This document shows, in pieces, positions 246 to 29,140 of a DNA stretch of 35,408 bases. A program made the translations under genes and the position numbers. The notes below the pieces were generated by a model that made no database searches, had not been told where the DNA came from, and worked only from the letters and a program-made list of their open reading frames with translations. The stretch comes from an uncultured Mycoplasma sp. (GTDB lineage: Bacteria; Bacillota_I; Bacilli_A; Mycoplasmatales; Mycoplasmoidaceae): assembly GCA_949285105.1 (NCBI GenBank), contig CASDXH010000010.1:1-35408 (forward strand). Direction: 5' to 3'. The first letter of the stretch is position 1, and every line of letters begins with the position of its first letter.

Positions 246-1567
246 GGTAGTGTAGCAATTTTTGGAGAAACTCATTTTTAGGTTATCTTTTAAATCGCTT
301 GATAACAACTATTTTATCTCACATAATCCATCTGGAAATAATATAGTTAGTTGATTTAATATTTGATGTCAGTTGTCAATAGCTCTTGAATCATAATCTT
401 CTTAGATGTTTACTAAACACATGTAAATTATTTTTATAACAATTGGGTGTTTGTAAAAGCATCTTTTGTTTTTGTAATCTTTCCGATATTTCTATTTAGA
501 TTTTCTATTGTGTTTGTTGTGTAGATCATTTTTCTAATTTCTGTTTGATAGTTAAAAAATGTTACTAATTCATCAAAATTATTTTTTCATGATTTGATAG
601 CATATGGATATTTTTCTCCACAAGATTTTTCAAAATAATCAAGTGCTTTAAGAGCAGCATCATAGCTTGGTTATTTATAAATTTTTTTCATATCACTTGT
701 GAATGACGCAACATCTTTTGAAGATACATGTTTTATAGAATTTCTTATTTGATGGATAAGGTATTTTGAATTTGAACATTTGGAAATGCAGCTTTTAAAG
801 CTTATGATATTCCCTTCAAATTATCACAAGAAGTTGGCAAAACATCTTTTACACATCTTGTTTTAAGTTCATCAAAAATCATTAATCATTGTTTAGATGA
901 TTTAGATTCAGCTATCCAAAAGCCCAAAATCTCTTTTTCCCTCAATATTAACACCAATTATTAAATGAACTGATTTTTCTTTGTAGACAGAATCCTCTCT
1001 AATTTTGAATCTGATCCCGTCTATGTACATAATTGGATAAACAGACTCTAACGGTCTTTGTTGTTGCATTACAATTTCTGAAATTATTTTATCTGTAATT
1101 CTAGAAATTGTGTCTTTGTCTAAATCACAATAAAACATTTGATATATTGTTTCCTGAATGTCTCTAGTAGACATTCCTTATTAAATATAAAAAAAGTATT
1201 TGATCTTCAATTCTTGATATATTTCTTTCATGTTTTTTAACAATCTTTGGTTCAAATGTTGATAGTTGTTCTCTTGAAACTTTAATATCAATTTTTCCGT
1301 TATCAGTTGATATTATTTTCTTAGTTTTTCCTTTTCTATAATTGTTAGAAACATCTCTAGAATTTTGATTGTGTTTTTGATAACCCATATGTTCATCAAA
1401 TTCAGCATCTAAAGTAGATTCAATAAAATGTTTTTTAATCTTACCAATTAGTTTGTTTAAATCTAACATTTGTCTTTGTTTTCTTGTTTTTTTGACATAA
1501 CTTGCTCCTAAAATTTATTTCAAACTTTTTTCTAAGAATAAGTTTCTCCAAAAAATGAGACAGTACC
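246..1567 (-). mobile_element. IS256-like (Mutator-type) element, decayed copy 1
   Basis: An element of about 1.32 kb whose transposase lies on the minus strand. The ends are imperfect inverted repeats of about 27 bp: the left end is at 246-272, the right end at 1541-1567, and both share TTTTTGGAGAAACT. The interior aligns by eye along its whole length with a second copy at 19389-20752. No target-site duplication is visible in the flanks. The transposase is broken, so the element is probably immobile on its own. Confidence 0.8.
312..1498 (-). pseudogene. IS256-family transposase pseudogene (copy 1)
   Basis: Reading starts at ATG 1498 behind an AGGAG-like site and soon meets TAG, because about 43 nt present in the other copy (around 20618-20660) are missing near 1470. 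After that the frame is broken again: one segment covers about 1469-1164 and another about 1174-908. The rest continues in other frames to a stop near 312. Recognisable stretches are the N-terminal region with EFDEHMGYQKHNQNS and, downstream, a degraded DDE region. The family assignment follows from alignment with copy 2 and the Mutator-like ending IYTTNTIE seen there. Several independent lesions make function very unlikely. Confidence 0.8.
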
Positions 1568-1809
1568 AATTTTCATATACTTGTATATTTGCTTTATCTT
1601 TATCAATAGGATTAATATTATTAGTTATCATTATCTCTGTATTGCAATATAGAGTTTATAGTCTATCTAACATATTTATTTCTTTAGTAATTAATTTACT
1701 CCATATATTTATGGTGTTGTTTTCATTATTCTTAATATTGTTTTCAAACTTCTTGGTAATCTTAATTCTTTTCAAAAGAGCTAATTTGAAAAAGACGATT
1801 ACAAATTAG
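1555..1809 (+). CDS. Small hydrophobic ORF starting inside the IS end (doubtful)
   Basis: An 84-codon frame with at least two strongly hydrophobic segments and a basic C-terminus (KRANLKK). Its only ATG (1555) lies inside the right inverted repeat of IS copy 1, and there is no Shine-Dalgarno sequence in front of it. It is most likely the 3' remnant of a membrane-protein gene whose beginning was lost at the IS junction, or a chance AT-rich frame. I see no matching 5' part to the left of the element. Confidence 0.3.
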   Translation: MRQYQFSYTCIFALSLSIGLILLVIIISVLQYRVYSLSNIFISLVINLLHIFMVLFSLFLILFSNFLVILILFKRANLKKTITN

Positions 1810-1839
1810 ATGTGCCCTGCATATCTTTTTTCTTTATTT

Positions 1840-1866
1840 TTAGCACTCTCATTTACAAAGTGCTAA
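1840..1866 (+). promoter_or_regulatory. CIRCE operator (HrcA-binding site)
   Basis: TTAGCACTC, exactly 9 nt, then AAGTGCTAA. The CIRCE consensus is TTAGCACTC-N9-GAGTGCTAA, so 17 of 18 arm positions match. HrcA binds this element and represses heat-shock genes in Firmicutes and mollicutes. It ends 37 nt before the start of the 120-aa gene. TAAAAT at 1864-1869, partly inside the right arm, or TATATT just after it, could be the -10, so a bound repressor would block transcription. Confidence 0.88.
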
Positions 1867-1903
1867 AATAGTGTTATATTATTCTTACCAGGAGGTATTG
1901 AAA

Positions 1904-2266
1904 ATGAATAGAATAAACGAATTAAAAATTAAAGAAAGAAAATTACACAACCAACTTGTAAACTTGGTTACATCAAATGATATTAATGATGAATCAATTA
2001 AAACTATTAACCAAATTAAAACTGAACTACAAACTATAGCTAATGAAATTAAAGATATAGAACATTCTAAAAATAATTGAGAATGTTTCCATATGTATAA
2101 ATCAGTTAATGGGAAGGTTGAAGAAGTTTTTAAAATAAATGATAAAGAAGTAAATAAAGAAGAATATTTAGAATTCATAAATAAAAATAACGAAGAAAGA
2201 TCAATAAAAAGATTATTAACTGAAGATTTATTAAAAACAATTTTTTCACCAATCTTTTTAATTTAA
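1904..2266 (+). CDS. Hypothetical 120-aa protein, putatively HrcA-controlled
   Basis: I do not recognise the family. The start is ATG 1904, 7 nt after a strong AGGAGGT ribosome-binding site. One in-frame TGA is read as Trp, and TAA 2264-2266 ends the gene. Residues 1-55 are charged and helix-forming, with regular leucine/isoleucine spacing (INELKIKERKLHNQL), so a short coiled coil is likely. Residues 56-120 contain a small acidic/basic mixed region with EEYLEFINKNNEE and end in a hydrophobic tail. There is no signal peptide. The gene stands alone between a CIRCE operator and a strong terminator, so it is probably a monocistronic heat-shock gene. A chaperone-like or adaptor role would be a guess. 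Confidence 0.8.
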
Positions 2267-2269
2267 GAT

Positions 2270-2310
2270 AATGCAGATATAGAATTAATTTCTATATCTG
2301 CATTTTATTA
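2270..2310 (+). terminator. Strong intrinsic terminator
   Basis: A perfect 15-bp stem (2270-2284 with 2290-2304), a 5-nt loop, then a T-rich tail. It begins 4 nt after the stop codon of the 120-aa gene. Confidence 0.88.
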
Positions 2311-29113: not shown

Positions 29114-29140
29114 TTAGCACTTTATGCATTAGTGTGATAA
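29114..29140 (+). promoter_or_regulatory. CIRCE operator upstream of dnaJ
   Basis: TTAGCACTT, exactly 9 nt, then GTGTGATAA: 15 of 18 arm positions match TTAGCACTC-N9-GAGTGCTAA. It lies 49 nt before the dnaJ start, and TATAAT at 29150-29155 could be the -10. HrcA repression of dnaJ-grpE is expected. Confidence 0.8.

What the first reader, a model, noticed from the sequence alone, without database searches (positions are those of the whole stretch)
1840..2266. Near-perfect CIRCE site in front of an uncharacterised 120-aa gene
17 of 18 CIRCE arm positions match, better than the site at dnaJ in this same window (15 of 18). CIRCE regulons in mollicutes are small and mostly chaperones or proteases. 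A small, non-secreted, probably coiled-coil protein with its own strong ribosome-binding site and terminator would be a new HrcA-controlled heat-shock gene.
Basis: partly seen in the sequence, partly recalled or inferred. Interest (0 to 1): 0.7.

Follow-up and report, generated by a model that had tools for sequence, protein, structure and literature searches.

The report
Lineage-specific heat-shock gene under HrcA
A small protein of unknown function in Malacoplasma bacteria carries the same heat-shock control site as the classical chaperone genes, in most relatives that have the gene, so it is probably an unrecognised stress protein of this genus.

Summary
A 17/18 CIRCE operator (1840-1866) lies 37 bp before a 120-aa ORF (1904-2266, one TGA read as Trp). 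About 0.0003 such sites are expected by chance in this 1.06-Mb genome. The genome encodes HrcA, and its other CIRCE-like sites are weaker: clpB 16, dnaK 15, dnaJ 15, lon 14 of 18. Orthologues occur in 7 of 10 Malacoplasma genomes, and 6 of these 7 have a 17-18/18 CIRCE directly upstream, the best site in each of the six genomes. The arms stayed fixed (16 of 18 columns) while other upstream DNA diverged (13 of 79), and the gene lies in different neighbourhoods. Of 71 other loci of the family with CIRCE at 16/18 or better, 66 lie beside dnaK, dnaJ, clpB or lon and 5 are this gene. The protein (dN/dS 0.13) has no recognised family: a predicted coiled-coil hairpin, a three-stranded beta meander and a C-terminal helix. 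I read it as a genus-restricted, HrcA-repressed heat-shock protein, probably a chaperone accessory. Regulation is well supported; function is a guess. HrcA binding and heat induction are untested.

The parts
1808..1826 (+). terminator-like hairpin that would close the upstream transcript
1840..1866 (.). CIRCE operator, 17 of 18 arm positions (arms 1840-1848 and 1858-1866)
   Evidence: conserved before 6 of 7 orthologues
1852..1880 (+). likely promoter TTTACA-17-TATATT with TG before the -10; its -35 lies in the CIRCE spacer
   Evidence: consensus match only, at chance frequency
1890..1896 (+). ribosome-binding site AGGAGGT
1904..2266 (+). 120-aa HrcA-regulated protein of unknown family, TGA=Trp at residue 59; predicted helices 3-23 and 29-57, strands 61-68, 71-78, 81-83, helix 85-114
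   Evidence: dN/dS 0.13 against G022
2270..2304 (+). intrinsic-terminator-like hairpin, 15 pairs, T-rich tail
29114..29140 (.). comparison: weaker CIRCE (15 of 18) in front of dnaJ

Best explanation
The gene is a Malacoplasma-specific member of the HrcA regulon. Without stress, HrcA sits on the CIRCE, which overlaps the -35 region, and keeps RNA polymerase off; when HrcA loses activity under heat or protein-folding stress, the single-gene unit is transcribed together with clpB, dnaK, dnaJ and lon. Because its operator is the best in the genome, it should be among the most tightly repressed. The product most likely acts as a small cytosolic accessory of protein quality control (a holdase or co-chaperone-like oligomer built on a coiled-coil hairpin, with a conserved beta meander and a hydrophobic or Phe-rich C-terminal tail). 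Shown by sequence: operator, its conservation, HrcA, constraint on the protein. Inferred: binding, induction. Guess from regulon company and shape: the chaperone-like role (about 0.35 on its own). The confidence given is for the regulation.
For: Operator 17/18, about 0.0003 expected per genome. Own genome encodes HrcA above the family cut-off. CIRCE of 17-18/18 before 6 of 7 orthologues, in each of those six genomes better than any other listed site. Arms invariant at 16 of 18 columns, spacer 2 of 9, other gap-free upstream columns 13 of 79. The operator follows the gene through different neighbourhoods: G000/G022, G023, G024, G028/G029. 66 of 71 surveyed family CIRCE loci adjoin dnaK, dnaJ, clpB or lon, the other 5 are this gene. 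dN/dS 0.13. HSP20 found in 0 of 10 genus genomes, and no GroEL found in G000, G022 or G023, which leaves room for an accessory chaperone. Precedent for HrcA control of a lineage-restricted gene of unclear function: wcw_0502 of Chlamydiota, with ChIP-qPCR support (PMC12038028, passages).
Against: The G025 orthologue has no CIRCE (best 10/18) although G025 has HrcA and 15/18 sites at dnaK, dnaJ and clpB. No orthologue was found in G026, G027 and G030 (90, 78 and 80% complete). The distant homologue in genus g6 (G021) has no CIRCE either (best 9/18). The six rows include two close pairs, so there are about four lineages. No fold or family match tells function. In M. gallisepticum, CIRCE promoters rise only about twofold on heat, like many CIRCE-less ones (PMC5138195, PMC4245973, passages).
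Confidence: 0.85

Rival explanations
1. The protein is not a chaperone accessory but a regulator or adaptor of the heat-shock response itself, for example a partner that modulates HrcA or hands substrates to Lon or ClpB, possibly a Lon substrate through its hydrophobic C-terminal end.
For: Six of seven orthologues end in a hydrophobic or aromatic run (IFLI, FFLI, LLNW, EFFF, KFFF twice). Its operator is the best in each of six genomes, which would suit a feedback component. G000, G022 and G023 lack a detectable GroEL, the known modulator of HrcA elsewhere (PMC7737663, passage).
Against: The gene also exists where GroEL is present (G024, G025, G028). The G025 protein ends in a Cys-rich stretch instead. 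No interaction evidence of any kind.
Confidence: 0.2
2. Metal-stress protein: in one clade the C-terminal tail is rich in Cys and His (G024, G025, G028, G029), so the protein buffers or delivers metal under stress.
For: Tails with CxC and His clusters: 2 Cys/2 His in G024, 2/6 in G028 and G029, 6/9 in G025.
Against: The window protein and those of G022 and G023 have no such tail, yet share core and CIRCE. The one core Cys (Cys61) is kept in 7 of 7 but is Pro in the g6 homologue.
Confidence: 0.12
3. The CIRCE is a leftover or serves the neighbouring gene, and the small gene is incidental.
For: In G024, G028 and G029 a divergent membrane-protein gene starts 56-111 bp from the CIRCE on the other side.
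Against: In G000, G022 and G023 the upstream gene is unrelated and not divergent; the small gene is the only shared element. Arms are fixed while flanks diverged. In the window a terminator-like hairpin separates the upstream ORF.
Confidence: 0.05
4. The inverted repeat arose by chance or acts only as an RNA hairpin.
For: CIRCE could form a stem if transcribed from a promoter further upstream.
Against: 0.00026 expected per genome, found again before 5 other orthologues, in four lineages with different spacers; the letters of the arms, not just their pairing, are kept.
Confidence: 0.02

Closest known systems
HrcA/CIRCE regulon of mycoplasmas (dnaK, dnaJ, clpB, lon, groESL)
   Same: same operator sequence, same 27-bp layout, similar distance to the start codon (37 bp here; 32-49 bp at clpB and dnaK in L083-L086) and co-occurrence with hrcA
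   Different: the target is not a known chaperone or protease and is found almost only in Malacoplasma
wcw_0502 / ctl0271 of Chlamydiota (PMC12038028, passages)
   Same: lineage-restricted gene of unclear function with a conserved CIRCE, heat-induced
   Different: that one is a type III secreted effector; no sequence comparison was made
COMM domain (COMMD proteins and a bacterial COMMD-like octamer)
   Same: weak structural match of the beta meander plus helix (6bp6 Z 4.3, rmsd 3.7 over 58; 8f2r Z 3.9, rmsd 4.3 over 61; 9q6c Z 3.2, rmsd 3.6 over 59)
   Different: Z in the range of common arrangements; no sequence match
SurA-like N-terminal domains (SurA_N_2) of peptide-binding foldases
   Same: shared strand-NG-strand-helix motif; weak hits in 4 of 8 C-terminal fragments, best E 0.011; profile hit to a PrsA/SurA-like lipoprotein in G622, E 8.5e-7 (the name is my reading of its sequence)
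   Different: weak E-values only; not secreted; the same motif also occurs in SMC heads

Membership tests
HrcA/CIRCE regulon | CIRCE TTAGCACTC-N9-GAGTGCTAA with at most two mismatches (limit used by PMC4245973 and PMC5138195) upstream of the gene | tested here: met
   one mismatch, 37 bp before the ATG
HrcA/CIRCE regulon | HrcA encoded in the same genome | tested here: met
   G000:C19:7108-8115, TIGR00331 above cut-off
HrcA/CIRCE regulon | operator conserved before orthologues | tested here: met
   6 of 7 Malacoplasma orthologues; G025 lacks it
HrcA/CIRCE regulon | HrcA binds the site and heat raises the transcript | not testable with these tools
   needs gel shift, ChIP or RNA
Small heat-shock protein (HSP20) | alpha-crystallin domain (PF00011) | tested here: not met
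   no PF00011 match for the window protein at E up to 10, and none in 10 genus genomes
COMM domain | COMM fold and family sequence signature | tested here: inconclusive
   Z 3.2-4.3 only; no COMM family among the Pfam hits shown
SurA_N-type chaperone module | significant Pfam SurA_N match | tested here: inconclusive
   4 of 8 fragments match SurA_N_2, best E 0.011

The most novel reading that the evidence does not exclude
This is the founding member of a new class of heat-shock protein: an HrcA-controlled oligomeric chaperone made of a coiled-coil hairpin and a small beta-meander domain, which in Malacoplasma takes the place of absent small heat-shock proteins and, in the GroEL-less lineage of the window, may also feed back on HrcA in place of GroEL.
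Probability: 0.2. Interest if true: 0.75.

Novelty: new member of a known kind. Interest (0 to 1): 0.52.

Why it matters
HrcA regulons of mycoplasmas are tiny, and the papers read here list only classical chaperones and proteases in them. A conserved extra target with the best operator in each genome points to a proteostasis component that annotation missed, in a genus with named species (M. iowae, M. penetrans, M. muris) where it can be tested directly.

Tried and rejected
Family searches gave only chance-level coiled-coil hits: Pfam (Vps54_N reached E 7.6e-6 in 2 of 7 members and was taken as coiled-coil noise), NCBIfam, PHROGs (phrog_10 'major head protein', 2 of 7 members, best E 0.0003, taken as noise), solved-structure sequences. 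Foldseek gave no match at E 0.001 or better for the whole model or for the C-terminal model. Against the whole model VIA-align listed only helical hairpins over residues 1-60; among these an Hsp104 row (6azy, Z 8.5) was not taken as meaningful, since many unrelated hairpins score the same.

Weak homologues in G152 and G037 were read as chance: the G037 match lies in a frame that looks like seryl-tRNA synthetase (my reading). The idea that the His/Cys tail came from a Helicobacter-like GroES (M. penetrans GroE came by lateral transfer, PMC5810989, passage) was rejected: the five GroES read have no such tail. A second candidate new target in the own genome, C37:512-538 before a 123-aa ORF, is 14/18 and within chance. 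The first listing of 'no chaperone' loci L095, L097, L098 and L119 was resolved as dnaK, dnaK, dnaJ and lon by tblastn. A first HrcA tree used a wrong ORF for G022 and was replaced. A scan of named genomes with the window protein alone found nothing; with the alignment it found four.

Limits: the CIRCE listing was cut after G038; one search left out G090; of the sites listed only 40 were fetched; loci L046 and L047 were not classified. Papers: searches in the open-licence library listed no paper that I recognised as describing this gene; only passages of five papers were read. Papers outside that library were not seen.

Full report
What was checked. The CIRCE is real: TTAGCACTC-N9-AAGTGCTAA at 1840-1866, 17 of 18. 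The only other window match with up to 3 mismatches is the dnaJ site at 29114 (15 of 18). Shuffled windows gave none in 100; by base composition 0.00026 such sites are expected in the genome of 1,055,329 bases. The ORF 1904-2266 encodes 120 aa, with TGA read as Trp at residue 59. It looks like a single-gene unit: terminator-like hairpins at 1808-1826 and 2270-2304, a promoter-like pair at 1852-1880 whose -35 lies in the CIRCE spacer, and AGGAGGT at 1890-1896. The promoter call is weak, since such pairs are as frequent in shuffles.

Which organism. Relatives of the gene lie in records named Malacoplasma sp. and uncultured Mycoplasma sp.; the contig of L069, titled Malacoplasma sp. isolate MAG2, has the same length as G025:C8. 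The genus is therefore taken as Malacoplasma (Mycoplasmoidaceae). That G024, with a 1,358,633-base contig, is M. penetrans HF-2 is recalled from memory.

The own regulon. HrcA is encoded. Other CIRCE-like sites of the genome: clpB 16 of 18 (C29), dnaK 15 of 18 (C36), dnaJ 15 of 18, lon 14 of 18 (C2). The lon site is at chance level by sequence alone and is believed only for its position. The small gene has the best operator.

Orthologues. A protein search over 95 family genomes found clear relatives in 7 genomes, all of the window's genus: G000, G022 (75% identity), G023 (39%), G024, G025, G028, G029 (31-35%) (six further genomes matched only at E 0.0009-0.008). A profile search of 320 order genomes gave 10 matches: these seven, G021 of genus g6 (E 5.6e-10, 113 aa, same layout) and two chance-like ones. 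A sample of 395 class genomes gave only the own genome and a segment of a large lipoprotein in G622. With a lax threshold, G026, G027 and G030 still had none; they are 90, 78 and 80% complete, so absence is not certain.

CIRCE before orthologues. G000 17, G022 17, G023 18, G024 17, G028 17 and G029 17 of 18, with 30-63 bp between the operator and the likely ATG. G025 has none (best 10 of 18 within 300 bp); its dnaK, dnaJ and clpB sites are all only 15 of 18, so its network looks weakened as a whole. G021 has none (best 9 of 18). In each of the six genomes the site at the small gene has the fewest mismatches of all sites listed. In the alignment of six upstream regions 16 of 18 arm columns are invariant, against 2 of 9 spacer columns and 13 of 79 other gap-free columns (Fisher p 9e-9, not corrected for relatedness). 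By the HrcA tree the six genomes are G000 with G022, G023, G024, and G028 with G029, so about four separate lineages. Neighbourhoods differ: G000 and G022 share a lipoprotein gene and the nusA-infB genes downstream; G024, G028 and G029 share a divergent membrane protein; G023 and G025 lie elsewhere (gene names are my reading). The operator has thus stayed with the gene.

Is it usual for CIRCE to mark such a gene? I classified 71 loci of the family with a CIRCE of 16 of 18 or better (not all that exist; see limits under Tried and rejected). 66 adjoin dnaK, dnaJ, clpB or lon (62, 4 more) and 5 are orthologues of this gene (count of 71). Papers on M. gallisepticum and M. pneumoniae name chaperones and proteases as HrcA targets (PMC4245973, PMC5138195, PMC7737663; passages). 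PMC5138195 states that functional CIRCE have at most two mismatches. Closest precedent for an unusual target: wcw_0502 of Chlamydiota (PMC12038028, passages).

The protein. dN/dS between G000 and G022 is 0.13 (dN 0.15, dS 1.17), so the protein is under purifying selection. AlphaFold2 on the seven-row alignment gives mean pLDDT 79: helices 3-23 and 29-57 as a hairpin, strands 61-68, 71-78 and 81-83, helix 85-114. Invariant residues in the seven rows include Cys61, Asn69-Gly70, Asn79, Val83 and Tyr88. G024, G025, G028 and G029 have longer tails with Phe-rich, acidic and Cys/His-rich stretches; G000, G022 and G023 end shortly after the last helix. Family and fold searches gave nothing firm: COMM domains at Z 3.2-4.3 and SurA_N_2 at E 0.011 are leads only.

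Proteostasis context. No HSP20 gene was found in any of 10 Malacoplasma genomes. GroEL is found in 6 of 10 and not in G000, G022, G023 and G029 (the close relative G028 has it, so G029 may be incomplete). In G024, G025, G026 and G028 a 14-of-18 CIRCE-like site stands before groES. Two clades thus differ: short protein and no GroEL, long tailed protein and GroEL. With two clades this is a coincidence until shown otherwise.

Reading. The regulatory claim is strong: operator, regulator, conservation across about four lineages and relocation of the gene, and the company of chaperone genes. The functional claim rests on that company and on shape only. I commit to a stress-induced accessory of protein quality control (holdase or co-chaperone-like), about 0.35, against a regulator or adaptor (0.2), a metal-stress protein (0.12) and other roles. 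It is a new member of a known regulon, encoded by an uncharacterised, nearly genus-restricted protein family.

Noticed in passing
window 902-1469, minus strand: Two adjoining ORFs that read like pieces of an IS256-type (mutator) transposase, apparently broken, just upstream of the finding. The name is recalled from the look of the sequence, not searched.
   Followed up: no
L008 (G025), upstream of the CIRCE-less orthologue: A perfect palindrome TGTAACATaATGTTACA stands about where the other orthologues have CIRCE; it could be another operator or chance.
   Followed up: no
L138, L139, L140, L141 upstream of groES: A 14-of-18 CIRCE-like site stands before groES in G024, G025, G028 and G026, but not in G027 (L142); G026 has no detectable hrcA.
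   Followed up: partly
L095 and L097 (G075): Genome G075 has two separate dnaK-like loci, each with a 17-of-18 CIRCE and each divergent from a glycosyltransferase-like gene.
   Followed up: partly
G024, G025, G028, G029 orthologues (L009, L008, L010, L011): C-terminal tails rich in Phe, acidic residues, His and Cys occur only in the clade of Malacoplasma in which GroEL is found.
   Followed up: partly
G000:C37:512-538 (L087): A 14-of-18 CIRCE-like site 24 bp before a 123-aa ORF of unknown function; about 2.6 sites at this level are expected by chance per genome.
   Followed up: partly
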